From: Acidimicrobiia bacterium | GTDB taxonomy: Bacteria > Actinomycetota > Acidimicrobiia > IMCC26256 > JAGPDB01 | Assembly (NCBI GenBank): GCA_018057765.1 | Contig: JAGPDB010000001.1 | Coordinates: forward strand, 1-64,000 | DNA length: 64,000 bases | Direction of reading: 5' to 3' | Shown here: one piece after another, positions 119 to 15,025 of the stretch | Layout: each line of letters opens with the position of its first letter | Position numbering within the stretch: position 1 is the stretch's first letter | Translations under genes and position numbers: made by a program | Notes under the pieces: generated by a model | What the model was told of the DNA's origin: nothing | The model's input: the letters and a program-made list of their open reading frames with translations, nothing else | The model's database searches: none

Positions 119-541
119 ATGAAAAAAATTAGAATTACAAAAATTACAAAAATGGCGATTATCGCATTAAGCCTTGTGAGTATTGCAGCGCTCTCTACAG
201 CATGTGGATCGAGTAGCGATGACAAAAAGGAATCAAAGACAAGTACTAGTACCAATACTAAAACAGTAAAAGTTTCACTTAAAGATGATGTATCAGGTAT
301 GTCTGTTACACCAGCATCAATAGAAGTAGAAGCTGGAACCAATCTTAAGCTAGTTGTGACTAATGATGGAACAGTTGTTCATAATTTAAGCACTGAAGAT
401 GGAAAATTCAAAACTGCGGATCTTACCCCTTTCTCTTCTGCTGATTTAGAAATAGGTAAAGTGGAAAAAAGTACTGAACTTAATTGTGCAATACCTGGAC
501 ACAAAGAAGCAGGCATGTTTATGAATATAGTTGTTAAATAA
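119..541 (+). CDS. Cupredoxin-like lipoprotein (blue copper protein)
   Basis: This is a predicted membrane-anchored extracytoplasmic type 1 copper protein of 140 residues. Residues 12-29 form a lipoprotein signal ending in LSTAC, with Cys29 as the lipidated residue. A charged Ser/Thr/Lys linker follows (31-48), then one cupredoxin domain (about 49-140). His88, Cys123, His128 and Met133 fit the four type 1 copper ligands. An AAAGGAG Shine-Dalgarno at 106-112 supports the start. The nitrite reductase-like gene starts 49 bases downstream, so this protein may be its electron donor; that pairing is inferred from proximity and type. Confidence 0.85.
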   Translation: MKKIRITKITKMAIIALSLVSIAALSTACGSSSDDKKESKTSTSTNTKTVKVSLKDDVSGMSVTPASIEVEAGTNLKLVVTNDGTVVHNLSTEDGKFKTADLTPFSSADLEIGKVEKSTELNCAIPGHKEAGMFMNIVVK

Positions 542-1833: not shown

Positions 1834-2238
1834 TTAGCAAACAAACATTGCAATTGCTTGGTTTACAAGATCTACTAATCTATCTAGTGGAGTTTCTGCT
1901 TTCTTAACGATCTTTATACCATCAAGGTTTGCACTTGTAGTACTAATGCTTTGATATTCAATAACATTATCTACATTTGATAATACAATGACAGGAATAT
2001 GCCTAGTTGAATCAACGGCTTTTAATGCATCTATTAGTTCCGCGCCATTCATATTTGGCATCATCAGATCAGAAACTATAACATCTGGCAAACTCTTTAA
2101 TGCAAGTTCTAAACCTTCTCTTCCATCAGCAGCTTGAAATACCTCATAGCCACGACTAGAAAGTTTAAGAGCCATAGCATTACGAAGGGAAGGTTCATCA
2201 TCAATTACAAGGACACTAAAGCTTGGCGAATTTTCCAT
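1834..2238 (-). CDS. Single-domain response regulator (CheY-like receiver)
   Basis: This 134-residue protein is one receiver domain with no output domain. The acidic pair Asp13/Asp14, phospho-acceptor Asp57 (in VSDLMMP), Ser87 (in VLSN) and Lys112 or Lys113 are in place, so phosphorylation should be possible. No histidine kinase is adjacent; the only kinase in the window is at 12.9-14.9 kb. A TTGACT -35-like element lies upstream near 2265. The output and partner cannot be read from the sequence. Two other lone receivers lie near 12 kb. Confidence 0.85.
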   Translation of the reverse strand: MENSPSFSVLVIDDEPSLRNAMALKLSSRGYEVFQAADGREGLELALKSLPDVIVSDLMMPNMNGAELIDALKAVDSTRHIPVIVLSNVDNVIEYQSISTTSANLDGIKIVKKAETPLDRLVDLVNQAIAMFVC

Positions 2239-2294: not shown

Positions 2295-3110
2295 TTATGG
2301 CATCCAATAAGGTTTGGGTGTCCCTTCAAAAACAGTTACACATTCGCAATTTCTTTGTTTTTCTGGTAAAAAATCAATCGCTCTCATAACAATATCTTTC
2401 ATTTTAGGAAGATTGGCTGAAAATAGTTCAAGTACTTCCTTTTGGGTCACACCTTCACCAGAATTAACTCCAGCATCAAAATCGGTAACTAAAGAAAGTG
2501 TGCTGTAACACATCGATAACTCTCTAGCTAACGCAGCTTCAGGCATTCCTGTCATTCCAATAATAGACCAACCGTTGCGTTGAAATTCTTGAGATTCAGC
2601 ACGAGAAGAAAATCTCGGACCGTCGATAACTACCATAATTGACTTGTCGCAAAATTTGAACTCTAAAGATTTGCAAGACTCCACTAATGCAGATCTTCCT
2701 TTTTCGCAATATGGGTCAGCAAGCGAGACATGTATAGCACCTTTATCCTCATTGCAAAAAGTAGAAATTCGTGTACGTGTGCGATCAACGATTTGATCGG
2801 AAACAACAAATGTCCCAGGTGTGAGTTGTGCATCGAGAGAACCAACTGCTGTCAGGGAAATAATTTGGTTAATACCAAGTGACTTTAATGCCCAAAGATT
2901 TGCTTGGTAAGGAACCCGATGTGCGGGGTATTGATGTTTAGAACCATGGCGAGAAAGAAAGTATACAGTGCGGTCGTTGATTGTACCTTTAGTGATATCA
3001 TCACTAGTTTTTCCATATGGTGTTGCAATATTAAGAGTTTCAGAATCGTTAAGTAATGAATAAAAACCCGAACCTCCTATAATTCCAATTGGTTCAGCAG
3101 TTTTATACAT
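2295..3110 (-). CDS. mtnP: S-methyl-5'-thioadenosine phosphorylase / purine nucleoside phosphorylase family
   Basis: Family members cleave 5'-methylthioadenosine or a related nucleoside with phosphate, giving adenine and a 1-phosphosugar, in the cytosol. The 271-residue protein has the phosphate loop IGGSGFY near residue 11, SRHG at 53-56 followed by a His/Arg-rich PAHR segment, a central AVGSL (88-92), an MTGMPEAALARE block and a DFDAG segment near the C terminus. It is divergent from the radical-SAM/glycosyltransferase cluster at 3.2-10 kb. A pnp gene borders the similar mycobacterial cluster as I recall it, so its substrate may be a product of that pathway rather than MTA alone. Confidence 0.88.
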   Translation of the reverse strand: MYKTAEPIGIIGGSGFYSLLNDSETLNIATPYGKTSDDITKGTINDRTVYFLSRHGSKHQYPAHRVPYQANLWALKSLGINQIISLTAVGSLDAQLTPGTFVVSDQIVDRTRTRISTFCNEDKGAIHVSLADPYCEKGRSALVESCKSLEFKFCDKSIMVVIDGPRFSSRAESQEFQRNGWSIIGMTGMPEAALARELSMCYSTLSLVTDFDAGVNSGEGVTQKEVLELFSANLPKMKDIVMRAIDFLPEKQRNCECVTVFEGTPKPYWMP

Positions 3111-3174
3111 GTCAAATATAGTAGCATTGCAAAAGGTATTTAATCTAAAAGCACTGCGAGCATCGTAATGTATA

Positions 3175-3196
3175 TATAATACCGCAAAGAAGGAGG
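3175..3196 (+). promoter_or_regulatory. -10 box and consensus Shine-Dalgarno leading the 3.2-10 kb cluster
   Basis: A TATAAT at 3175-3180 is followed by AAGGAGG at 3190-3196, seven bases before the ATG at 3204. It is among the strongest ribosome-binding sites in the window and marks a short-leader mRNA for the cluster. I see no good -35 element. Confidence 0.6.
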
Positions 3197-3203
3197 AATA
3201 TAT

Positions 3204-4343
3204 ATGATTACCGACATCCTAGATCGGCTAGAAAAAGTTCTACCAATAATCCGCGATAATGCACAAGCGACTGATGATAATGCAAAATTTCCAACAGAAT
3301 CAATTAGTGCACTTGCCGATTCTGGTTTGATGGGTGTTAATATTCCAGTAACTAATGGCGGACTTGGTTATGGACCAGTTGAATTTGCGCATGTGGTTCG
3401 TGAAATCGCACAAGCTTGTGGATCGACTTCAATGATCTATCTGATGCATATGTGTTCAGTATCGGTTATTGCCGCAGCACCGCCAAGTAATGGAGGAGAT
3501 CAACTTGTAAAGGATCTTGCTAGTGGAAAAAAATTAGCAACACTTGCTTTTAGCGAAAAAGGATCACGTAGTCATTTTTGGGCGCCAGTCTCACAAGCGA
3601 AATCGACAGATGAAGACAAAGTTAGTATTGTTGCCGAAAAAAGTTGGGTAACTTCCGCATCAGAAGCTGATGTTTATGTTATTACATCACAAGCCCCAGA
3701 AGGAGAAAGTCCTGTAGAGAGCAACCTATATGTAGTTGACCGAACTGCACTAGGAGTTAAAGTTTCAGGGCAATTTACTGGTCTTGGTTTACGTGGCAAT
3801 GACTCTGCACCAGTATCACTTGATATAGAACTTTCTAATAGTACCGCTCGTTTAGGTGAAGAAAAAACTGGTTTTGGTCAATTAATGTCAGTTGTACTTC
3901 CATGGTTCTGTCTCGGTAATTCGGCTGTTTCAGTAGGTTTGGCACGAGCTGCTTTAACTGGTGCTATCGATCATGCTTCAGCTTCTCGTTTTGAATATTC
4001 AGATTCAACACTTGCTGATCTTCCTACCATTCGTGCTTATATAGCTAAAGCTTGGGTTCAACTAGCATCTATTGATGCTTTGTTAGAAAAAACTGCAGAA
4101 AAGATAGCATCACCTGACGACTCAACTATCCTATTTGTTCTCGGCTCGAAAGCAGGATGTAATGAAGGTGCACTTAACGTCACTGATTTATCTATGCGTA
4201 TAGCTGGTGGCGCGGGATTCTCAAAGCAGTTAGGAATTGACCGACCAGCACGCGATGCACGTGCAGGATTTGTAATGGCACCAACATCTGATGCCCTATT
4301 TGATTTCTTAGGCAAAGGCCTTTGCGGAATGGATCTATTTTGA
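3204..4343 (+). CDS. Acyl-CoA dehydrogenase family flavoprotein
   Basis: This 379-residue protein has the full acyl-CoA dehydrogenase layout: an N-terminal helical domain (about 1-115), a middle beta domain (about 116-230) and a C-terminal helical domain ending in RIAGGAGF and the ARDARAG stretch. Members oxidise acyl thioesters using FAD. The acceptor and substrate cannot be read here. It is the first gene of a run whose next gene overlaps its stop codon, so it is probably co-expressed with the PhnD-like, radical-SAM and sugar genes. That placement argues for a role in a biosynthetic pathway rather than beta-oxidation. The Shine-Dalgarno is near perfect. Confidence 0.85.
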   Translation: MITDILDRLEKVLPIIRDNAQATDDNAKFPTESISALADSGLMGVNIPVTNGGLGYGPVEFAHVVREIAQACGSTSMIYLMHMCSVSVIAAAPPSNGGDQLVKDLASGKKLATLAFSEKGSRSHFWAPVSQAKSTDEDKVSIVAEKSWVTSASEADVYVITSQAPEGESPVESNLYVVDRTALGVKVSGQFTGLGLRGNDSAPVSLDIELSNSTARLGEEKTGFGQLMSVVLPWFCLGNSAVSVGLARAALTGAIDHASASRFEYSDSTLADLPTIRAYIAKAWVQLASIDALLEKTAEKIASPDDSTILFVLGSKAGCNEGALNVTDLSMRIAGGAGFSKQLGIDRPARDARAGFVMAPTSDALFDFLGKGLCGMDLF

Positions 4344-5176
4344 ATAATAATAATGAACAAAAAACTAATGAACTCTTAATAGGTGCGGTTGCCTATAGCC
4401 CTAACGTAGTACCAATATGGGAAGGAATCAAAGATTACTTTCGAGAAACCGATACACCTATGGACTTTGTTTTATATTCAAATTATGAACGTCAAGTTGA
4501 ATCATTAATTGCAGGTCATGTTGATGTTGCATGGAATACAAATGTGGCATGGATACGTACTTTGCATCAGACTGATGGTAAAGCTAGAGCTCTAGCGACT
4601 CGTGATACTGACTTAGTATTTACAACTGTGTTTGTTTCAAGATCAGGTTCAGGTTTAAAGTCTCTTGAATCATTAAAGAATAAACGTGTTGCTCTTGGTT
4701 CTCGTGATTCGGGTCAAGCAAGAATTTTAGCCGAACATTATTTGGCACAAGCAGGAATAGACAAAGACAATTGTACTTTCATTATTTTTGATTCAGATGT
4801 TGGTAAGCATGGTGACACAGGTCGATCTGATCTTGATGCTCTACGAGCTGTACTTAACGATGAAGCGGATGTTGCAGCAATCGGTGTTAATACTTGGAAT
4901 AATTTAAATGCAGCTGGTGACGAATCAACTTCTGATTTAGAAGTTGTATTTGAGTCTGAACAATATAGCCATTGTAACTTTACAACGCTAAGACCTGATA
5001 AAGATCCTTTGATCGAAAGATGGGTTAATAATCTTTTGAAGATGGACTGGGAAATCCCAGAACATCGTGTTGTATTAGAACTTGAAGGCTTAAAAGAATG
5101 GAAACTTCCAAACTTAGATGGCTATAAATCTTTAGAAATGGCCATGGAAACTCAAGGCATTTCGGATCGTTGGTAA
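4340..5176 (+). CDS. PhnD/SsuA-type periplasmic-binding fold protein without signal peptide
   Basis: This protein of about 278 residues resembles substrate-binding proteins of the phosphonate/phosphate (PhnD) type: it opens with a GAVAYSPNVVPIWEG-like strand-helix, has DVAWNTNVAW after the first lobe strand, and LKNKRVALGSRDSGQ at the second. I see no signal peptide or lipobox, and no transporter genes adjoin. The start is probably TTG 4340, which overlaps the upstream stop as TTGA; a TTG 18 bases earlier is possible. Some cytosolic relatives of this fold are enzymes (MqnA, MqnD, THI5-type), so an enzymatic role is a reasonable inference. Confidence 0.75.
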   Translation: MNNNNEQKTNELLIGAVAYSPNVVPIWEGIKDYFRETDTPMDFVLYSNYERQVESLIAGHVDVAWNTNVAWIRTLHQTDGKARALATRDTDLVFTTVFVSRSGSGLKSLESLKNKRVALGSRDSGQARILAEHYLAQAGIDKDNCTFIIFDSDVGKHGDTGRSDLDALRAVLNDEADVAAIGVNTWNNLNAAGDESTSDLEVVFESEQYSHCNFTTLRPDKDPLIERWVNNLLKMDWEIPEHRVVLELEGLKEWKLPNLDGYKSLEMAMETQGISDRW

Positions 5177-5179
5177 ATT

Positions 5180-6172
5180 ATGAATTCATTGCTCGCGCTT
5201 GAGCTAGTCGAACGTGTGCAGATGATACCTTTAGGCACCACAGTTCGTATAGAAGTTAATGGTCCTGATGATGTTGATACTATAAACCGTTGGACACAAT
5301 CAACGGGGAATACTTTATTGACTGTTCATGGTGATTCTGTAGAAATTTTAAGAGGTCGGGTAACTGATCCAATAGAAGCTCTAGCCCCTGATAAAAGACC
5401 AGGCCATCGACTTTGGATCTACACAAATTTTTCATGTAATCTTCAATGCGATTATTGTTGTGTGGAAGCATCCCCAAAAGTTGACCCACGCACAATTACT
5501 GTTGATGAATTTGAGAAGATTATTGATCAAGCTAAAAATTCAAATGTAAAAGAGGTTTTCATAACCGGTGGAGAACCATTTATGCTCATTGACTTAGATG
5601 AACGTCTGAATTTATCTACAAAAATATTCCCAACAACAGTATTGACTAATGCAATGGTATTTACTGGTGAACGTAGACGTCGTTTAGAAAATGTTGATCG
5701 TAATAATTTGACTTTACAAATAAGTTTAGATTCTGCAACACCAGATCTACATGATTTACATCGCGGGCAGGGGAGTTTCGATAAGGCATTAGCTGGCATA
5801 AAGTTTGCTATAGAAAGTGGATTTCGAGTCAGGGTCGCTGCAACTTTAGGCGAGGATGCAGGCGAAACAGAAAGCGAATGGAATGCATTATGTGATGATT
5901 TGAAGTTGGAACAAGACCAGAGGGTTATTCGACGTATTGCAAAACAAGGTTATGCAAATGCTGGGCTTGTAATGTCTCGCGCGTCTTTGATTCCTGAAGT
6001 GTGTATTACAAAAGAAGGTGTTTATTGGCATCCTGTTGCAGCGATTGATCCAAGCATGAAAGTCCAAAACGATTGGTCACCATTAGCTGAAACTATATCA
6101 ACAATTAAAGATGAATATAGGCAACATCGCATTAAGGGAGATGTTCTTGCATCTGCTTTTCCATGTGCCTGA
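5180..6172 (+). CDS. Radical SAM protein with N-terminal TusA-like domain
   Basis: This 330-residue protein has two parts. Residues 1-62 have a TusA/SirA-like pattern (ELVERV, then PLGTTVRIEV, then a helix and INRWTQSTG) but lack the CPxP cysteine of TusA; an in-frame stop six bases upstream rules out a longer N terminus. Residues about 76-330 form a radical SAM domain with Cys86, Cys90 and Cys93 in CxxxCxxC for the 4Fe-4S cluster, and GGEP at 130-133. Cys94, Cys238, Cys275 and Cys329 are extra cysteines, perhaps for an auxiliary site. It starts three bases after the PhnD-like gene. The reaction is unknown. Confidence 0.85.
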   Translation: MNSLLALELVERVQMIPLGTTVRIEVNGPDDVDTINRWTQSTGNTLLTVHGDSVEILRGRVTDPIEALAPDKRPGHRLWIYTNFSCNLQCDYCCVEASPKVDPRTITVDEFEKIIDQAKNSNVKEVFITGGEPFMLIDLDERLNLSTKIFPTTVLTNAMVFTGERRRRLENVDRNNLTLQISLDSATPDLHDLHRGQGSFDKALAGIKFAIESGFRVRVAATLGEDAGETESEWNALCDDLKLEQDQRVIRRIAKQGYANAGLVMSRASLIPEVCITKEGVYWHPVAAIDPSMKVQNDWSPLAETISTIKDEYRQHRIKGDVLASAFPCA

Positions 6173-6185
6173 TTGGAATTGATTG

Positions 6186-7235
6186 ATGAAAATTTTAGTT
6201 ACTGGTGGTGCTGGATTTATTGGACAAAATGTTGTTAATGAACTTTTAATAGCAGGACATAGTGTCAGAGTCATAGATTCTTTAAGACCAGATGTTCACC
6301 ATGGCAATGAGGTTAAATTTTCAGATGATGTTAATTTTATTCATGAAGATATAAGAAATGAAATTTTATTGCCCAAAGTACTAAATGGTATTGATCATGT
6401 TATACATTTGGCTGGTAAAGTTGGCTTAGGTGTAGATATGTATGACACTGTTGATTATACATCTTCTAATGTTTTAGCTACTGCAATATTATTAGAAGAA
6501 ATGACAAAACAAAATATCTCTAATATTACGCTTGCGAGCTCAATGGTTGTATACGGTGAAGGATATTCACTATGTGCTGAACATGGCAAAGTGATACCTA
6601 CTCAACGCAATGAGGATGATCTGACAAAAGGAATCTTCGAAGCCAATTGTCCTATGTGTGATAATGAATTAACTCCAATAAGTGTCATAGAAGATGATCC
6701 ATTAATGCCACGTAATGTATATGCATCAACAAAACTTGCTCAAGAAAATCTATGTTCCTCATGGTCAAGATTAACGAATGGTTCTGTTAGCGCAATGAGA
6801 TACCATAATGTTTATGGGCCAAAAATGCCTAAAGATAGTATGTATTCAGGTGTAGCTGCAATTTTCATTTCGTCATTATTAAGAGATCAAGCGCCAAAAG
6901 TTTTTGAAGATGGTTGTCAACGTAGAGATTTTATACATGTATCTGACATTGCAAAAGCAACAGTGAAAGCAAACCTTAATCACAAATCTGGATTTCGTGC
7001 TTTTAATACTGGATCGGGCACTATTCGAACAATAGGAAATATGGCTAATGAATTGTCGAGAGCATTTAATGGGAAAGCTCCTATTGTGACAAAACAATAC
7101 CGTCTTGGAGATGTTCGACATATTACTGCGGACTCAACAAGGCTAAAAACTGAATTAGATTGGCAGCCAGAAATAGATTTTGAGAAAGGCATGAAAGGCC
7201 TTGTTGACGAAGCGATGAAGACCAATCATGTCTAG
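6186..7235 (+). CDS. NAD-dependent epimerase/dehydratase (extended SDR, nucleotide-sugar type)
   Basis: This protein of about 349 residues is an extended short-chain dehydrogenase acting on a nucleotide-activated sugar. It has the Rossmann motif GGAGFIG at 7-13, a Ser-Ser pair at about 118-119, and Tyr179/Lys183 in YASTK. Between them sits an unusual insert (about 126-172) with Cys130, His133, Cys155 and Cys158, spaced like a small zinc site. ATG 6186 is preferred over the TTG just before it. The spacing to the radical-SAM gene is 13 bases. It resembles the galE3-type gene next to pnp in mycobacteria, as I recall it. The substrate is unknown. Confidence 0.85.
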   Translation: MKILVTGGAGFIGQNVVNELLIAGHSVRVIDSLRPDVHHGNEVKFSDDVNFIHEDIRNEILLPKVLNGIDHVIHLAGKVGLGVDMYDTVDYTSSNVLATAILLEEMTKQNISNITLASSMVVYGEGYSLCAEHGKVIPTQRNEDDLTKGIFEANCPMCDNELTPISVIEDDPLMPRNVYASTKLAQENLCSSWSRLTNGSVSAMRYHNVYGPKMPKDSMYSGVAAIFISSLLRDQAPKVFEDGCQRRDFIHVSDIAKATVKANLNHKSGFRAFNTGSGTIRTIGNMANELSRAFNGKAPIVTKQYRLGDVRHITADSTRLKTELDWQPEIDFEKGMKGLVDEAMKTNHV

Positions 7236-7259
7236 TGAAAATATGGGTATAAATATAAT

Positions 7260-7931
7260 ATGATTGATCTAATTCTGCCATGTCTAAATGAAGAAAAAGC
7301 ATTACCATGGGTTCTAAGTAGAGTAAGCAAAAATATTAATGCGATTGTTGTAGATAATGGTTCAAGTGACAATTCTATTGAGATCGCAAAAAGTTTTGGA
7401 GCAAAAGTTATTGAGTGTGAACAGCCTGGTTATGGCGCTGCTTGCCATGCCGGCTTGTTAGCTGCAAGTGCACAAACAATCGCATTTTGTGATTGTGATG
7501 CAACTATTGATCCAAGCGTAATAGATTTACAGGCAGTTGCAGTCCAAGAACAAACTATAGATTTAGCAATCGCTAGACGAATTCCCGCATCTTATAGTGC
7601 AATGACAATTCCTATGCGAATTGCTAATAGAGAATTAGCTAGAAGAATAAGGAAAAGTACAACCTATAAACTTTTTGATCTTGGTCCACTTCGAATAGTG
7701 AATACACAAAAATATATTGATCTTAATATTAAAGATAGACGTAGTGGCTATCCATTGGAAATGATTTTACGAGCTAACGCAAAAAATTGGAAAATTAAGA
7801 CTTTTGATATTCAATATCTCAAACGTGAAGGTAAGTCTAAAGTAACAGGCACTCTTCGTGGTACGATAAATGCTATTAAAGATATGAATAAGGCATTTTC
7901 AGATATGCATATTGAAAGTGAAAGTCGGTAA
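7260..7931 (+). CDS. Glycosyltransferase family 2 (polyprenyl-phosphate sugar synthase-like)
   Basis: This 223-residue GT-A transferase starts with the ILPCLNEE nucleotide-binding strand and has VVDNGSSDNS at about 30-39, CDCDATID (the DxD metal site) at about 78-85, and an acceptor-side segment with DLGPLR and RSGYPLEM. It has no membrane segments. Its size and motifs suit a DPM1/polyprenyl-phosphate mannosyl- or glucosyl-transferase. Together with the GT-C gene downstream, it could supply a lipid-linked sugar donor; that link is inferred from the operon. Confidence 0.82.
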   Translation: MIDLILPCLNEEKALPWVLSRVSKNINAIVVDNGSSDNSIEIAKSFGAKVIECEQPGYGAACHAGLLAASAQTIAFCDCDATIDPSVIDLQAVAVQEQTIDLAIARRIPASYSAMTIPMRIANRELARRIRKSTTYKLFDLGPLRIVNTQKYIDLNIKDRRSGYPLEMILRANAKNWKIKTFDIQYLKREGKSKVTGTLRGTINAIKDMNKAFSDMHIESESR

Positions 7932-7938
7932 TAATCTA

Positions 7939-8610
7939 ATGGAGGCTAGTGATACTTCAACCATATCGAACAATATTTCTAGAAAAACAATTATTTTAAT
8001 TGCAAAAGAACCAATTGTTGGTAATGTAAAAACTCGTCTCGTCCCTCCGTTAACCTACGAACAAGCAGCTGAACTTGCAGATAGCGCTTTATTAGATACT
8101 ATTGATACTATAAAAGGAATCAATTCAATAGATTCAGTCCTATACTTTCAAGGCGATCCTAAAAAATACTCTGAAGCTTTTACAAGTATAATTTCTCAAT
8201 GTGATGGAGATTTTTCTAAGCGGTTAAGTTTTGCATTTATGAATGTTAGCCATAAACAACCAGCGATGTTGGTCGCTATGGATACACCACAGATAACAAA
8301 TTATTTACTATCGGCTTTTGACCCAATTAAATTTGATGCATGTATAGGGATGACAACAGATGGTGGTTATTGGATTATTGGGTTCAGAAATCCGGACTTA
8401 GCGAAATATGCATTTAGTGATATTGCTATGTCAACAAATGAGACAGGTAAAGCACAACTTAATAGATTAAAAGAATTAAATTTAAATGTTCAGATACTCG
8501 ATACATTAACTGATTTTGATGATATAGAATCTGCCCACATGGTTTATGAAATGATACCAAGTTCGCGATTTGGGCATACCTTTAAAAAGATCATTGAAGA
8601 ATTAGATTAG
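7939..8610 (+). CDS. DUF2064 / CofC-like GT-A transferase
   Basis: This protein has the DUF2064 pattern (about 223 residues): LIAKEPIVGNVKTRL near the N terminus, LVAMDTPQI in the middle, then TTDGGYWIIGF. The fold is nucleotidyl/glycosyl-transferase-like, and some members have been tied to arsenosugar biosynthesis; nothing here shows arsenic chemistry. The frame is open from TTG 7912 inside the preceding gene, but ATG 7939, eight bases after that gene's stop, is the simpler start. The pairing of GT2 and DUF2064 also occurs in the mycobacterial pnp-galE3 region as I recall it. Confidence 0.8.
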   Translation: MEASDTSTISNNISRKTIILIAKEPIVGNVKTRLVPPLTYEQAAELADSALLDTIDTIKGINSIDSVLYFQGDPKKYSEAFTSIISQCDGDFSKRLSFAFMNVSHKQPAMLVAMDTPQITNYLLSAFDPIKFDACIGMTTDGGYWIIGFRNPDLAKYAFSDIAMSTNETGKAQLNRLKELNLNVQILDTLTDFDDIESAHMVYEMIPSSRFGHTFKKIIEELD

Positions 8611-8613
8611 TTA

Positions 8614-9981
8614 ATGAGTATTCTCCTTAAGCAAAGTTTTTTCAAATATCTTTTATTTATATCTTTCCTTGCACAAGGTATAATCACAGTTCTATTTTTA
8701 AATACTGAAACAATTAAATATAATGATATAAAACTATTAACTATAAATCTAATTTTATTTTCAATATCGATTTTAGCTATCAAGAATTTAAACATTTCAA
8801 AAAAATCATTTGCTGTAATTTTAGTTTTAGGTGCCGTTTTTCTACAAATATGTGCGATGAGTTCGCCTCCTTCGACTAGTGATGATGACTTTAGATATTA
8901 TTGGGATGGAAAAGTACAAGTAAATGCCATTAATCCTTATAGGTATTCGCCTGCTGATGAGAAGGTAGCGTATCTTCGTGACGATTTTATATTTTCAAGA
9001 AAAAAGCCATGCCCCGAACATCGTATTAAACCGCGTGAGTGTTCAAAGATTAATAGACCAACTGTTAATACAATTTATCCTCCAGCATCACAGGCTACAT
9101 TTACTGCTTTGTATCTAACTACATTTATAACTGGCAAAAGCCATTTGCCTTACCAGGTAGCTGGAGCAATTGGAGTATTAATAATTTCTTTTCTAATAGC
9201 AAAAAGGCTAGCTGTAAATGGAAGTTCTCTTTGGGCGAGTGCTGTTTTTGCCTGGTGCCCAATAACATATATTGAATTGGTTAATAATGCACATATAGAT
9301 TGGCTTGGTATAATATTTGCACTATTAGCTTTATCTGCTTGTGCTTCAAAGAAATATATTCGATGTGGGATTTTCATTGGTATTGCTTTTGCCTCAAAGT
9401 TCTATCCGGCAGTTATATCTCCATCATTGATTTCAAAAAAGCCGCTTCGGGTTATCCTCAGCGCTATTTTGACTGTAGCAGTGTCTTATTTAGGATATGT
9501 GCTTTCTATTGGTACTAAAGTTCTTGGCTTTTTACCTGGCTATCTTGAAGAAGAAAAATATTCTAATGGTGAAAGATTTTTACTATTAAGTAGAATTTTT
9601 ACTACTCATCAATCAACTTATATTGCTTTGTTGGTACTAGTGATAGTATCTATTTATGCGATGTTTAAAACTGATCCATCATTTCCGGAAAATAGTGCAT
9701 TGCTATTACTAGTTTGTGTAACTTTAATTTCAACTCCTGCTCAAGGTTGGTATAGTCTATTATTACTTTCGCTAATCGCTATCACAAAGAAATTCTTTAT
9801 ATTACCAATAGTCTTTGTGTCATCTTACGTTTATCTAGCACAACAGTCTTTTGGAACTCAGCGAGGTATAGCTTATAATTTGTATATATGGGCAGTTATA
9901 ATAACTTTAGCGCTATGGGGTGCTGGAAGTTATAGAAAGAAAAAAGAGCATCACGTTAATTTAGAGATTGCTCAGGTATAA
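8614..9981 (+). CDS. GT-C membrane glycosyltransferase (GT87/DUF2029-like)
   Basis: This 455-residue integral membrane protein has about ten or more hydrophobic segments. An extracytoplasmic loop after the second or third segment carries SDDDFRYYWDG followed by NPYRY (about residues 87-110). That acidic Asp-rich motif is typical of polyprenyl-phosphate-sugar-dependent mannosyltransferases. It would transfer a sugar on the outer membrane face from a lipid donor, possibly one made by the GT2 protein two genes upstream. It is the last gene of the sugar cluster, since a new promoter appears at 9977. The C terminus is short and basic. Confidence 0.8.
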   Translation: MSILLKQSFFKYLLFISFLAQGIITVLFLNTETIKYNDIKLLTINLILFSISILAIKNLNISKKSFAVILVLGAVFLQICAMSSPPSTSDDDFRYYWDGKVQVNAINPYRYSPADEKVAYLRDDFIFSRKKPCPEHRIKPRECSKINRPTVNTIYPPASQATFTALYLTTFITGKSHLPYQVAGAIGVLIISFLIAKRLAVNGSSLWASAVFAWCPITYIELVNNAHIDWLGIIFALLALSACASKKYIRCGIFIGIAFASKFYPAVISPSLISKKPLRVILSAILTVAVSYLGYVLSIGTKVLGFLPGYLEEEKYSNGERFLLLSRIFTTHQSTYIALLVLVIVSIYAMFKTDPSFPENSALLLLVCVTLISTPAQGWYSLLLLSLIAITKKFFILPIVFVSSYVYLAQQSFGTQRGIAYNLYIWAVIITLALWGAGSYRKKKEHHVNLEIAQV

Positions 9982-9988: not shown

Positions 9989-10507
9989 ATGATTAAGCAA
10001 ATAAGAAAGTTAAATTTTTCTTCAATTATTATCTGCGTTTCAAGAATCTCATTAGGTTTACTCTGGATTGAAAATTCTGGTTGGAAATCAATTTCAGATA
10101 ATTTTGGAAAGAAAAATAATAGTGGTCTATATTATTACACTAAGTTTGGTTCAACAAAACCTGTATTAGGATTTATGAAACCATTAGTCGATAATATAAT
10201 TTTACCTAATTTTACTTTTTTTGGTTGGATGTCTTTAATAACAGAAGCAACGCTTGGCGCTTTTATTTTATTTGGTTTATACACTAGATTTTTCTCTTTG
10301 TTAGGTGCTTTTATGTCGATAACTATTGCGCTAACGGTTTTAAATGCTCCCAATGAATGGCCGTGGAGTTATTATTTACTACTAATGGCAAACCTATTAA
10401 TGTTTGCTAGTTGCGCTGGTAGACACGGTGGCCTAGATGGGGTACTACGTAAATTCTGGATTAATGGTAAAGGCAGAATTACAAAACTATTCTTGGCGGT
10501 ATCATAA
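9989..10507 (+). CDS. DoxX/DoxD family membrane protein
   Basis: This protein of about 172 residues has four predicted membrane helices. ISLGLLWIENSGWK near the N terminus and the helix ending GLYTRFFSLLGAF are typical of the DoxX/TQO-small-subunit family. In archaea DoxD belongs to a thiosulfate:quinone oxidoreductase, but most bacterial DoxX proteins have no assigned substrate. ATG 9989 is chosen over TTG 9968 because of the TATAAT box. The next gene overlaps its stop by one base, so the two are coupled. Confidence 0.78.
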   Translation: MIKQIRKLNFSSIIICVSRISLGLLWIENSGWKSISDNFGKKNNSGLYYYTKFGSTKPVLGFMKPLVDNIILPNFTFFGWMSLITEATLGAFILFGLYTRFFSLLGAFMSITIALTVLNAPNEWPWSYYLLLMANLLMFASCAGRHGGLDGVLRKFWINGKGRITKLFLAVS

Positions 10508-10878
10508 TGATGAAACTAAATAAAGAATTCTCAACTAGTATTACTGTCATTGGTGCTAGCTCCATTGCTTTTAGTTTGTTCTCACAAATTGACTCAGATT
10601 TAATAAATTTTATAAAAATGGGTAATAGTGCTGCTATTACACTTATAGTCTTGGGTATTGCAACTATCCTAGTTGGTCTATCAAAAAGCATATTACTATT
10701 ACTAGGAATCGGATTGGCATACTTAGCGATGTGTATTACTGCTTTGTATCAATTTCGTTTGCCGGGCAAAGAGCGAATATTTGATAGTGGAGGATCTTTA
10801 TTCTCATTAACTTTAGGTTTTTGTGTTGCATTGTTAGCTATAGCGTTAACAAATATTTTTTATACAAAACAGGAATAA
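10507..10878 (+). CDS. Small membrane protein, unrecognised
   Basis: This 123-residue protein has four predicted membrane helices and short polar loops. Its ATG shares a base with the DoxX stop (TAATG), so it is translationally coupled to it. I recognise no family motif. Its neighbours suggest a membrane accessory of the DoxX protein, but that is only position-based. An adjacent second ATG (10510) could be used. Confidence 0.7.
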   Translation: MMKLNKEFSTSITVIGASSIAFSLFSQIDSDLINFIKMGNSAAITLIVLGIATILVGLSKSILLLLGIGLAYLAMCITALYQFRLPGKERIFDSGGSLFSLTLGFCVALLAIALTNIFYTKQE

Positions 10879-11840: not shown

Positions 11841-12012
11841 ATGATTAACATCAGTTATGAATTATAACTAAAGTTCTTCTTGAATAATTCTCTCAATATG
11901 TTCTCCTGGATATAGTATTTCAATAAATGCTTTATCGAGATAATTATCATATGTAGATTGAACTACTTTCAAAATAATATTTTTATTAATCAGTACATAG
12001 AATTTTATAATG

Positions 12013-12018
12013 TATACT
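12013..12018 (+). promoter_or_regulatory. -10 box TATACT, leaderless receiver gene
   Basis: TATACT lies six bases before ATG 12025. It overlaps an alternative upstream ATG (12010), which argues that translation begins at 12025. Confidence 0.55.
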
Positions 12019-12024
12019 TTAAAA

Positions 12025-12414
12025 ATGAATTTAACAAAACCGACAGTACTAGTTGTTGAAGATGAGATACCATTACAGAAAGTTGTTGGATTTAAGTTAG
12101 AACTTGCAGGTTTCAATACCATATCTGCACGAACTACAAAACAAGCGCTTGAGTATTTAGATGAAATTGAGAATATAGACCTAATTTGGCTAGACCACTA
12201 TCTATTAGGTAAAGAAACAGGAATGGACCTGGTAGTTGAAATTAAAAAAAATGATAAATATAAACATTTGCCAATTTTTTTAATTTCAAATTCAAGCGAT
12301 GATGAAAAGAAGCATATCTACATTGGCTTAGGTATTGATAAATATTTCATTAAAGCAGAAATGCGACTCGATGCTATTATTCAAGATATTAAAGAAAATT
12401 TACAAAATAAATAA
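12025..12414 (+). CDS. Single-domain response regulator (CheY-like receiver)
   Basis: This 129-residue receiver has the acidic pair in VVEDE (about residues 12-14), Asp56 in WLDHYLLG as phospho-acceptor, Ser in FLISNSS, and Lys in YFIKAE. There is no output domain. It is convergent with a second lone receiver, with the two stops adjacent. Start 12025 rests on the TATACT box six bases upstream. It may take phosphate from the membrane kinase at 12.9-14.9 kb; that is inferred from proximity. Confidence 0.82.
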   Translation: MNLTKPTVLVVEDEIPLQKVVGFKLELAGFNTISARTTKQALEYLDEIENIDLIWLDHYLLGKETGMDLVVEIKKNDKYKHLPIFLISNSSDDEKKHIYIGLGIDKYFIKAEMRLDAIIQDIKENLQNK

Positions 12415-12825
12415 TTAGATAATATCTGAGATATTATCTGTGTCAATTGACATATCTCTATCTAGTAATAAAATAATTTTACTTTTGATTACAGACAGCG
12501 GTGAATCTGATTTAATAAGAAAACCAGCAGTCCCCAAAGCCATTGCCTTTTGGCGATCATTTAAATTATCTAGATTTGAGAGAACAAGTATTTGAATTTT
12601 GGGACCATATTTTTCTCGTATTTTTTCGATAAGTTCGAATCCATTTAGTCTGGGCATCAATAAATCCGTTACAACAAGATCAGGTTTAAATTCATCATAT
12701 TTTTCAAGTGCATCTAAACCATCTTCACACAAACATACCTCATAGCCCGCCTTTTCGATGGCTAAACCCAAAAGTGTACGCAGAGATGGCTCATCTTCTA
12801 CTAACAGTACTTTTTTTACTTCAAT
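12415..12825 (-). CDS. Single-domain response regulator with non-standard start
   Basis: This is a receiver domain of about 136 residues with VLLVEDEPSLR at the N terminus, the phospho-acceptor in VVTDLLMPRLNG, VLSN and FLIKSD. The first in-frame ATG (12771) would remove the whole first strand and the acidic pair, yet the frame upstream reads as good receiver sequence back to an in-frame TGA at about 12840. No ATG, GTG or TTG is available there; ATT 12825 (or ATA/ATC just before it) would have to serve, with AGGTGA upstream. It lies downstream of the histidine kinase on the same strand, so the two are a likely phosphorelay pair. Confidence 0.72.
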   Translation of the reverse strand: MEVKKVLLVEDEPSLRTLLGLAIEKAGYEVCLCEDGLDALEKYDEFKPDLVVTDLLMPRLNGFELIEKIREKYGPKIQILVLSNLDNLNDRQKAMALGTAGFLIKSDSPLSVIKSKIILLLDRDMSIDTDNISDII

Positions 12826-12894
12826 ATTTCCTATGATTCACCTACTTTTTAATCTTTCGTTTTAAAACTTATGGGCTAAAGGTTAATTGTATAT

Positions 12895-14886
12895 TTATGC
12901 ATCAAGAAGAGTGGACCCTTCTAAGTTTTGGCCCAGACCCTTGAGAGGTAGTAATACGTAAAAGTTAGTTCCTTTACCTTCGTCTGAAATAAACCAAATT
13001 TTTCCGCCAATGCTTTCAACAATACCTTTTGCTATATAAAGACCTAAACCATTACCATTGCTTGACATGATCTGTGCATTACTTGCTCTGAACATTTTTG
13101 TATACATTTTGTCTTGTTGCTCTATTGGTATTCCAATTCCCGAATCAGATACTGCAAATAATAATGTAGGTTCATTTATATCAAGGTTGTTTATTGATTT
13201 ATTTTTACTTTCTTTATCTAATAATGAAGTTTCGATTGTAATAGTTCCATCGGGCGGCGTGTATTTAATTGCATTGCTTATCAAATTCTGTGCGAGGATA
13301 GATATAAAACCATCGTCAAATAGGATCTCAGGTATATCTGCATAGTTTCTAATTATTGTATTTTTATGTACTTTGGATAATGGAATTAGTTCTTTAATAT
13401 TTTTATCAATTGAATTGTTAAAATCATTCATAGATGGTTCGAAATGAAGAGAACCAAGTTCAATACGAGATACATTTAGAAGCGATCGAACTAAATCGAC
13501 CATTCTGCGACTTGCATCATAAATCTCATTCGTCATCATCTGCTGAGTTTCATTCATCTCTCCAGCGTCACCGCTAATAAGTAATTCTGCATTCCAGTTT
13601 ATTGAAGATAAGGGTGTTCGTAACTGGTGCGATGCAATTGAAACGAATTCGGATTTTGCTCTATCGATTTCATTTTCTCGAGTGATGTCTCGAAAAATAT
13701 TTATGGCACCAAGGATTCTACCTTCGAGAATTATTGGTGTCATGGTTGATGATACTGCAACTTTTTCTGTATCAGAAAAAACATAATAAAAATTGCCAGA
13801 TTCTTTTATACCTTGGTTTAAAACTCTATTTAAAGGTAGTTCATTATCATTAAGAACAGATCCTGATAAGGTATGTACTTTCCAAAGCCCTTCATAGGCT
13901 TTACCTAATATTTCACTTTCCTCATAATTCAACATTGAAAGGGCAGTAGCATTGATTGATTTAATCGTTCCGTCATAGTTAATAATTACCATAGCGTCAC
14001 CAATACTAGAAAGAACAACGTCATCCCATGCTTTACTCTCTTGTAAAAGTTCGGTAAGGTTCTCGGTTTTTACTGAAGTTATTAGTGTCACAATAATAAA
14101 GAATGCAGCAAATGTGACCGAAAATAAAGCAGAACCTACAGAGGGTTCGTACAGATTGTTTTTGATTCCTTTATCTATTATTAAAACCATACACAAAGTT
14201 CCAATAATAATATAATTAATTAGACGTCTTGACGTATTACCGCCAACACCGGCACTAACAATAATCTTTGTTGTACCCTTATCTGGATCTATTAGAATTA
14301 TCGAAATACTTAAGAGGATGATCGTTATCGATGTGTGTAAAGCCATTGCAGCAAAAAATAAAAATGTTCCTGCGATTCTTGCGCCAAGGGTATAACCTAT
14401 GATGGCAAATGAGCCTATAAAAAGCGAGATGCTAACAAGTATTTGTGAAATTATTACCTTGCTAATTTTATAATCATCTATCAACATTGAAATGGCTAGT
14501 AGTGCAAAGCTAAATGCAGTTAAATACGCAACTGGACTTGTGATTAGGTCAGATCTAAATATTAATTTAATAATACGACTGTTTATATCTATATTATTAT
14601 TAATTAAGTCAAGGAATCTAGTAAAAGTAATTAATAATACTAGCCAGCTCAAAATAGGTGATAATTTACGCTTGTTCGATTCTTTAAATAAAATCGATGA
14701 GCTTATAAGCATAATCATTGTTGCTGTCATCGGATTCATCGATGGAAGAGTCGGTATGATTGACTGTAAAGTTTTGATGTTTAAAAAATAGCCGATTACA
14801 ACCAAGACAGCAATTAGCAAAGAAGCGTATGCCAGTAACTTAGAGACAATCTTGCAATTACTTAATATTCGTTGATTTGCAGTCAT
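12895..14886 (-). CDS. Membrane-bound sensor histidine kinase with PAS domain
   Basis: This protein of about 663 residues has an N-terminal region of about eight membrane helices (20-275), which resembles a MASE-type sensor. A PAS domain (about 285-405), a HisKA domain with His420 in SHQLRTPL, and a HATPase domain follow, with the N box NLISNAIKYTP, the G1 box DSGIGIP and NGLGL. All catalytic features are present. ATG 14886 is preferred over TTG 14913, though neither has a clear ribosome-binding site. The receiver at 12415-12825 follows on the same strand. The signal sensed cannot be inferred. Confidence 0.88.
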   Translation of the reverse strand: MTANQRILSNCKIVSKLLAYASLLIAVLVVIGYFLNIKTLQSIIPTLPSMNPMTATMIMLISSSILFKESNKRKLSPILSWLVLLITFTRFLDLINNNIDINSRIIKLIFRSDLITSPVAYLTAFSFALLAISMLIDDYKISKVIISQILVSISLFIGSFAIIGYTLGARIAGTFLFFAAMALHTSITIILLSISIILIDPDKGTTKIIVSAGVGGNTSRRLINYIIIGTLCMVLIIDKGIKNNLYEPSVGSALFSVTFAAFFIIVTLITSVKTENLTELLQESKAWDDVVLSSIGDAMVIINYDGTIKSINATALSMLNYEESEILGKAYEGLWKVHTLSGSVLNDNELPLNRVLNQGIKESGNFYYVFSDTEKVAVSSTMTPIILEGRILGAINIFRDITRENEIDRAKSEFVSIASHQLRTPLSSINWNAELLISGDAGEMNETQQMMTNEIYDASRRMVDLVRSLLNVSRIELGSLHFEPSMNDFNNSIDKNIKELIPLSKVHKNTIIRNYADIPEILFDDGFISILAQNLISNAIKYTPPDGTITIETSLLDKESKNKSINNLDINEPTLLFAVSDSGIGIPIEQQDKMYTKMFRASNAQIMSSNGNGLGLYIAKGIVESIGGKIWFISDEGKGTNFYVLLPLKGLGQNLEGSTLLDA

Positions 14887-15025
14887 ATAGTTAATTAAAA
14901 GTATAACGCACAAATATAGTTATATCATCGATGTGTACTTTGAGAATTAAATCATATTACCAATAAAATCATTAACAAATAAACATATTCTTTTCTGCAA
15001 TTAGTGCGCTAGAAATACAATAAGA

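What the first reader, a model, noticed from the sequence alone, without database searches (positions are those of the whole stretch)
2295..9981. Candidate undescribed pathway: nucleoside phosphorylase, TusA/radical SAM, cytosolic PBP-like protein and sugar transferases
Seven co-directional genes with gaps of 24 bases or less (acyl-CoA dehydrogenase, signal-less PhnD-like protein, radical SAM, epimerase, GT2, DUF2064, GT-C) lie divergent from an MTAP-family phosphorylase. The sequence shows the families and spacing directly. From memory, the pnp-galE3-GT2-DUF2064-membrane core resembles M. tuberculosis Rv0535-Rv0541c, which has no assigned product. The radical SAM, PBP-like and dehydrogenase genes look like added chemistry. 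Inference: a SAM-derived nucleoside or sugar is modified, the base is removed by the phosphorylase, and the sugar is attached to a lipid or surface acceptor.
Basis: partly seen in the sequence, partly recalled or inferred. Interest (0 to 1): 0.75.

Follow-up and report, generated by a model that had tools for sequence, protein, structure and literature searches.

The report
Methylthio-sugar cap pathway with radical-SAM add-on
A bacterium that is not a mycobacterium carries, in one operon, relatives of the genes that put the unusual methylthioxylose sugar on the tuberculosis cell surface, joined to a second gene block (Rv1678-Rv1681) of unknown function that almost never occurs without them, which suggests what that orphan tuberculosis block is for.

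Summary
In detail: seven tightly packed genes (3204-9981) lie divergent from a methylthioadenosine phosphorylase (MTAP, 2295-3110). The operon continues to about 11283 with DoxD, the Rv1678 C-terminal part and a small membrane protein. It joins two modules that M. tuberculosis keeps apart: (1) the MTAP / GalE-like / GT2 / DUF2064 / GT-C set of Rv0535-Rv0541c and (2) the Rv1678-Rv1681 block (DoxD, FadE16, PhnD-like protein, radical SAM). It has one: methylthioxylose (MTX), the cap of lipoarabinomannan (MtxS = Rv0539, MtxT = Rv0541c). Module 2 has no known function. It is tied to module 1 far beyond chance: 40 of 40 radical-SAM-bearing genomes tested have an MtxS relative (43 of 296 in a phylum sample), 18 of 80 loci have it within 10 kb (about 0.3 expected), and two congeners lack both. 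Best reading: a surface-glycosylation pathway turning methylthioadenosine into a lipid-linked methylthiopentose, here with a different final transferase and so probably another acceptor, plus a redox/radical block that tailors this sugar. The exact chemistry of the block is not resolved. New variant of a known kind.

The parts
2295..3110 (-). S-methyl-5'-thioadenosine phosphorylase (MTAP), Rv0535-like; divergent from the operon; only copy found in the genome
   Evidence: NF005876 353.8 bits (cut-off 306) and TIGR01694 282 (cut-off 274.9); single hit in own genome
3204..4343 (+). FadE16/Rv1679-like flavoprotein of the acyl-CoA dehydrogenase fold without the catalytic Glu (MAPT where the fold has the catalytic E-G-T)
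   Evidence: NF049984 499.8 bits, below its cut-off of 600; conservation in 74 relatives
4340..5176 (+). cytosolic PhnD-fold binding-protein-like protein, Rv1680 family; no signal peptide
   Evidence: NF049985 409.8 bits (cut-off 400); AlphaFold pLDDT 89; nearest folds PhnD, PtxB, ArrX, AioX; no hydrophobic segment. Open frame begins at 4322
5180..6172 (+). radical SAM protein, Rv1681 (MoeX) family; CxxxCxxCC plus an invariant C-terminal FxCA cysteine; TusA-like N-terminal domain without its cysteine
   Evidence: NF049973 433.7 bits (cut-off 380); C329 in 81 of 81; model pLDDT 85
6186..7235 (+). GalE/SDR-type sugar-nucleotide epimerase (Rv0536/GalE3-like); ribo-to-xylo inversion inferred
   Evidence: PF01370 1.6e-43; same family next to MTAP in mycobacteria
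7260..7931 (+). MtxS (Rv0539)-like GT2, polyprenyl-phosphate sugar synthase
   Evidence: PF00535; nearest NCBIfam is dolichyl-phosphate hexose transferase; aligns with the mycobacterial gene at the MtxS position, 36-49% identity to relatives
7939..8610 (+). DUF2064/TIGR04282, CofC-like; candidate nucleotidyltransferase for the sugar 1-phosphate (inferred)
   Evidence: PF09837 and PF01983; TIGR04282 112 bits, below its cut-off of 134. Open frame begins at 7912
8614..9981 (+). GT87-like GT-C membrane glycosyltransferase, not of the family found at the MtxT position in mycobacteria
   Evidence: PF09594 22.4 bits, below its cut-off; relatives L066 and L093 score above it; about 11 hydrophobic segments; no relation to the A2 family by hhalign
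9989..10507 (+). DoxD-family membrane protein, N-terminal half of Rv1678
   Evidence: PF04173 1.7e-9; 69 of 80 loci carry it
10507..10878 (+). C-terminal half of Rv1678 as a separate gene
   Evidence: NF049986 2.4e-7, 30.6 bits, below its cut-off of 50; fused to DoxD in L121
10891..11283 (+). small membrane protein, last gene of the run; relation to the pathway not known
   Evidence: 12-base gap; no Pfam match; five hydrophobic segments

Best explanation
The locus is an MTX-type surface-glycosylation operon. Proposed order: MTAP splits 5'-methylthioadenosine into adenine and 5-methylthioribose 1-phosphate; the DUF2064 protein activates it to an NDP-sugar; the GalE-like enzyme inverts it towards the xylo form; the MtxS-like GT2 loads it on polyprenyl phosphate; and the GT87-like GT-C transfers it outside the membrane to a surface glycan that is probably not lipoarabinomannan. 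The Rv1678-Rv1681 block (DoxD, FadE16, PhnD-fold protein, radical SAM) belongs to the same pathway as an accessory tailoring unit acting on the methylthiopentose or its precursor, by radical and flavin redox chemistry; one candidate is oxidation or remodelling around sulfur/C5. Shown here: families, operon, co-inheritance and co-localisation. Shown by others in M. tuberculosis: MtxS and MtxT roles and the MTA origin. Inferred: the DUF2064 and GalE steps, the acceptor, and everything about the chemistry of the block.
For: Families: MTAP above two curated cut-offs; Rv1680 and Rv1681 families above cut-off. Literature: MtxS = Rv0539 makes MTX-P-C50 and MtxT = Rv0541c transfers MTX to LAM (PMC8780516); five-gene MTX cluster (PMC6461223); MTA is the starting donor (PMC11127046). 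Order MTAP-Epim-MtxS-DUF2064-GT-C confirmed in three mycobacterial genomes. Linkage of the two modules: 40 of 40 radical-SAM-bearing genomes have an MtxS relative against 43 of 296 in a phylum sample; in that sample 8 of 8 with this radical SAM type have it (p about 1e-7); 18 of 80 loci have it within 10 kb where about 0.3 is expected; all 13 radical-SAM-positive of 198 mycobacteria have strong MtxS and GT-C hits, in seven of them about 20-27 kb away. All eight partner families around one radical SAM gene, within the 20 kb fetched, in L062, L070, L073, L078, L111, L113, L121, L134. Two congeners lack both modules. Own genome lacks the mycobacterial-type GT-C, so the last transferase is swapped.
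Against: Most mycobacteria with the MTX genes lack the block (136 of 149), so it is not needed for MTX itself. In mycobacteria alone the association is weak (p 0.02) because MTX genes are common, and no count here is corrected for phylogeny. No product is known for any organism outside mycobacteria. GalE-like and DUF2064 roles are not tested. The cluster MTAP is the only one in the genome, so it may also serve ordinary salvage.
Confidence: 0.62

Rival explanations
1. The block makes the sulfoxide form (MSX) of methylthioxylose: FadE16 is an S-monooxygenase of the acyl-CoA dehydrogenase fold, with DoxD and the radical SAM protein as partners.
For: FadE16 lacks the catalytic Glu, as expected if it is not a dehydrogenase; weaker hits to sulfur-oxidising relatives of the fold (SfnB, DszC); MSX is abundant in LAM of all four M. 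tuberculosis strains examined (PMC8531672); members of the M. kansasii complex also carry the block.
Against: MSX could arise by plain oxidation; the closest solved relatives are ordinary acyl-CoA dehydrogenases; gives no job to the radical SAM enzyme or the PhnD-fold protein.
Confidence: 0.15
2. The radical SAM enzyme installs a different 5-substituent, as ArsS does in arsenosugar biosynthesis, making a second 5'-substituted adenosine that MTAP and the sugar genes then process.
For: Same logic as arsenosugar and adenosylhopane pathways (5'-deoxyadenosyl adduct, base removal, sugar transfer; from general knowledge); DUF2064 and GT2 belong near the families NCBIfam calls arsenosugar glycosyltransferases; the PhnD-fold protein resembles arsenate, arsenite and phosphonate binders.
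Against: Radical SAM scores only 48.9 against ArsS (cut-off 300); no arsenite methyltransferase match in the own genome; the invariant C-terminal Cys is more typical of an H-atom donor (inference).
Confidence: 0.12
3. The radical SAM enzyme is a sugar epimerase that inverts C3 (ribo to xylo), with the C-terminal Cys as hydrogen donor.
For: C329 is invariant in 81 of 81; fold neighbours include the epimerase EpeE and sugar or nucleotide enzymes BlsE, DesII, AbmM, MoaA.
Against: A GalE-like epimerase is already present, and most mycobacteria with MTX genes have no radical SAM of this family.
Confidence: 0.08
4. Two unrelated operons lie together by accident, and each gene has a separate housekeeping role.
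For: Separate loci in some mycobacteria (G435: about 1.5 Mb apart).
Against: Co-inheritance and co-localisation far above expectation, with many different gene orders.
Confidence: 0.06

Closest known systems
Methylthioxylose (MTX) capping pathway of M. tuberculosis lipoarabinomannan (Rv0535-Rv0541c; MtxS Rv0539, MtxT Rv0541c)
   Same: MTAP, GalE-like, MtxS-like GT2, DUF2064 and a GT-C membrane transferase in one locus
   Different: GT-C is of a different family; the operon also holds the Rv1678-Rv1681 block; found in a low-G+C actinomycete that is not a mycobacterium, with no evidence of lipoarabinomannan
M. tuberculosis Rv1678-Rv1681 block (NCBIfam NF049986, NF049984, NF049985, NF049973)
   Same: All four families present, two above curated cut-off
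   Different: Rv1678 is split into two genes and placed at the other end of the operon; physically joined to MTX-type genes; no function known anywhere
Arsenosugar biosynthesis (ArsM, ArsS, phosphorylase, TIGR04282/TIGR04283)
   Same: 5-deoxy-5-hetero-pentofuranose logic; DUF2064/TIGR04282 relative, GT2, radical SAM
   Different: No ArsS-level score and no ArsM in the genome
Three-component extracytoplasmic pentofuranosylation (GT136 systems, PMC11127046)
   Same: Polyprenyl-phosphate pentofuranose donor and GT-C transferase
   Different: Donor from methylthioadenosine, not PRPP; no UbiA-type synthase in the operon

Membership tests
MTX-type pathway | MTAP acting on methylthioadenosine | tested here: met
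   Family membership only: NF005876 and TIGR01694 above cut-off; activity not testable
MTX-type pathway | MtxS-type GT2 | tested here: met
   Aligns with the mycobacterial gene at the Rv0539 position; 36% identity to it, 36-49% to relatives. The window protein is part of profile A3, so its own profile score is circular
MTX-type pathway | MtxT (Rv0541c)-type GT-C | tested here: not met
   Own genome has no hit to A2; window GT-C unrelated by hhalign. That A2 is the Rv0541c family rests on position, size and topology, not on the Rv sequence itself
MTX-type pathway | Methylthioxylose product on a surface glycan | not testable with these tools
   needs glycan analysis
Rv1681 radical SAM family (NF049973) | score above curated cut-off 380; CxxxCxxC | tested here: met
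   433.7 bits; cysteines in 81 of 81
Rv1680 SBP-like family (NF049985) | score above curated cut-off 400; no signal peptide | tested here: met
   409.8 bits; no hydrophobic segment
Rv1679 FadE16 family (NF049984) | score above curated cut-off 600 | tested here: not met
   499.8 bits, still far above every other family
Acyl-CoA dehydrogenase (as an activity) | catalytic glutamate | tested here: not met
   MAPT motif at that position, conserved in relatives
TusA sulfur carrier | CPxP cysteine | tested here: not met
   no such motif in the N-terminal domain
Arsenosugar radical SAM ArsS (TIGR04167) | score above cut-off 300; ArsM in genome | tested here: not met
   48.9 bits; no ArsM match in own genome

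The most novel reading that the evidence does not exclude
The Rv1678-Rv1681 block makes a so far undescribed derivative of a methylthioadenosine-derived pentofuranose by radical SAM chemistry, and this modified sugar decorates the surface of many Actinomycetota, including M. tuberculosis and the M. kansasii complex.
Probability: 0.3. Interest if true: 0.8.

Novelty: new variant of a known kind. Interest (0 to 1): 0.62.

Why it matters
MTX is the epitope behind a sensitive urine test for tuberculosis (PMC6258851), and a 2024 paper states that it is unclear whether MTX exists outside lipoarabinomannan (PMC11127046). This locus and its relatives make that directly testable in harmless soil and water bacteria. 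It also gives a concrete functional lead for four M. tuberculosis genes of unknown role (Rv1678-Rv1681), one of which is still called a molybdopterin gene (moeX), and bears on the unexplained sulfoxide form of the cap.

Tried and rejected
A single-protein scan of genome contigs found no relatives; the alignment query worked. Futalosine-type menaquinone synthesis was considered because it also combines PBP-fold enzymes, radical SAM enzymes and a nucleosidase; no Mqn family appears among the hits shown, so rejected. TusA sulfur transfer was rejected for lack of the cysteine. Arsenosugar synthesis was lowered by the missing ArsM. Metallophosphatase-radical SAM fusions (L004-L008) looked related, but none of those five genomes has a strong MtxS hit, so they are kept apart. 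The promoter/terminator scan was at chance level. Papers naming at least two of Rv1679, Rv1680 and Rv1681: none; the moeX papers listed do not treat its function. The key MTX paper (Angala 2017) is not held and is cited through papers that describe it. A Streptomyces-only baseline could not be run.

Full report
What is there. An MTAP gene (2295-3110, minus strand) faces a tight plus-strand run: FadE16-like, PhnD-like, radical SAM, GalE-like, GT2, DUF2064 and GT-C. The run continues past the given end with DoxD, the Rv1678 C-terminal part and a small membrane protein, to 11283. NCBIfam names the first three genes of this run and the gene after DoxD after four consecutive M. tuberculosis genes: Rv1679 (FadE16), Rv1680 (SBP-like), Rv1681 (radical SAM) and Rv1678 (membrane). 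Rv1680 and Rv1681 pass their curated cut-offs; FadE16 and the Rv1678 C-terminal part fall below theirs. In L121 the DoxD and Rv1678 C-terminal parts are one gene.

Rv0539 is MtxS, forming decaprenyl-phosphate-MTX, and Rv0541c is MtxT, which transfers MTX to the mannose caps of LAM (PMC8780516). A five-gene cluster is dedicated to it (PMC6461223). The starting donor is 5'-methylthioadenosine, and whether the modification exists outside LAM was unclear in 2024 (PMC11127046). In three mycobacterial genomes the order MTAP, epimerase, MtxS, DUF2064, convergent GT-C was confirmed. The primary paper is not held. That the Rv0535, Rv0536 and Rv0540 products are MTAP, GalE3 and DUF2064 is from memory plus this synteny.

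The two modules belong together. An alignment-based scan returned 80 loci around the radical SAM gene. DoxD is beside it in 69, the FadE16 gene in 73 and the PhnD-like gene in 79. An MtxS-type GT2 lies within about 10 kb in 18, where about 0.3 is expected for a random position. Complete or near-complete sets occur in Glycomyces, Agromyces, Phytoactinopolyspora, Mycolicibacterium pyrenivorans, Arthrobacter, a marine actinobacterium and several uncultured lineages, in different gene orders and orientations. Of 40 radical-SAM-bearing genomes, picked to span genera before the result was seen, all 40 have an MtxS relative, 38 of them with E of about 1e-80 or lower. In a phylum-wide sample only 43 of 296 have one at E below 1e-60, yet all 8 genomes with this type of radical SAM (metallophosphatase fusions excluded) do (p about 1e-7). 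In 198 mycobacteria the radical SAM gene occurs in 13; all 13 have strong MtxS and GT-C hits, although those are common in the genus (149 of 198 for the GT-C), so p is only 0.02. Two genomes of the window's own genus lack both radical SAM and MtxS. None of these numbers is corrected for shared ancestry.

What differs from the known pathway. The window's GT-C is a GT87-like protein (relatives L066, L093, L123, L128), not the family found at the MtxT position in mycobacteria and in many other relatives; a profile comparison gives no relation, and the own genome has no member of that family. The genes for the donor are kept while the last transferase is exchanged, which suggests the same or a similar donor and a different acceptor (inference).

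What the block may do. FadE16 has the acyl-CoA dehydrogenase fold by sequence, but the catalytic glutamate position reads MAPT, and a GSRSHFW motif is conserved. The PhnD-like protein has no signal peptide, a strongly conserved set of residues including one invariant cysteine, and a predicted fold nearest to phosphonate, phosphite, arsenate and arsenite binders. The radical SAM protein has CxxxCxxCC and an invariant penultimate cysteine (81 of 81); its fold neighbours include sugar- and nucleotide-acting enzymes (BlsE, DesII, AbmM, MoaA) and an epimerase as well as peptide maturases. DoxD is a small membrane protein of a family that includes a thiosulfate:quinone oxidoreductase subunit. Since most mycobacteria with MTX genes lack the block, it cannot be needed for MTX itself; a tailoring role fits best. 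Sulfoxidation is the most concrete option because the sulfoxide MSX is abundant in M. tuberculosis LAM (PMC8531672), but it leaves the radical SAM and PhnD-like proteins unexplained.

Verdict. Observation confirmed and extended. The locus is a new variant of the MTX pathway, and the tie between the two M. tuberculosis gene sets is the finding of interest. Whether NCBI's curators already noted this tie in model comments could not be checked here.

Noticed in passing
window 119-541 and 591-1703: A cupredoxin-like lipoprotein-type protein next to a multicopper oxidase-type protein (copper nitrite reductase-like), just upstream of the locus.
   Followed up: partly
window 1834-2238 and 12010-14913: Stand-alone response-regulator receiver proteins on both sides of the operon and a PAS histidine kinase at 12895-14913; many relatives carry an OmpR-type regulator and histidine kinase inside the cluster.
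   Followed up: partly
L004, L005, L006, L007, L008: Metallophosphatase-radical SAM fusion proteins related to the Rv1681 family (fusion seen by Pfam in L004, L005, L006, L008), in L006/L007 overlapping a DUF2064 gene; their genomes have no strong MtxS hit.
   Followed up: partly
L009-L013, L033-L036: A shorter radical SAM sister family (about 275 aa, no TusA-like domain) usually beside DoxD, in some with a carboxymuconolactone decarboxylase-like gene; its genomes tested also have MtxS relatives.
   Followed up: partly
L128 (Acidobacteriaceae bacterium KBS 83): The same gene set (GT2, DUF2064, GT-C, radical SAM, PhnD-like, FadE16) in an acidobacterium, suggesting transfer between phyla.
   Followed up: no
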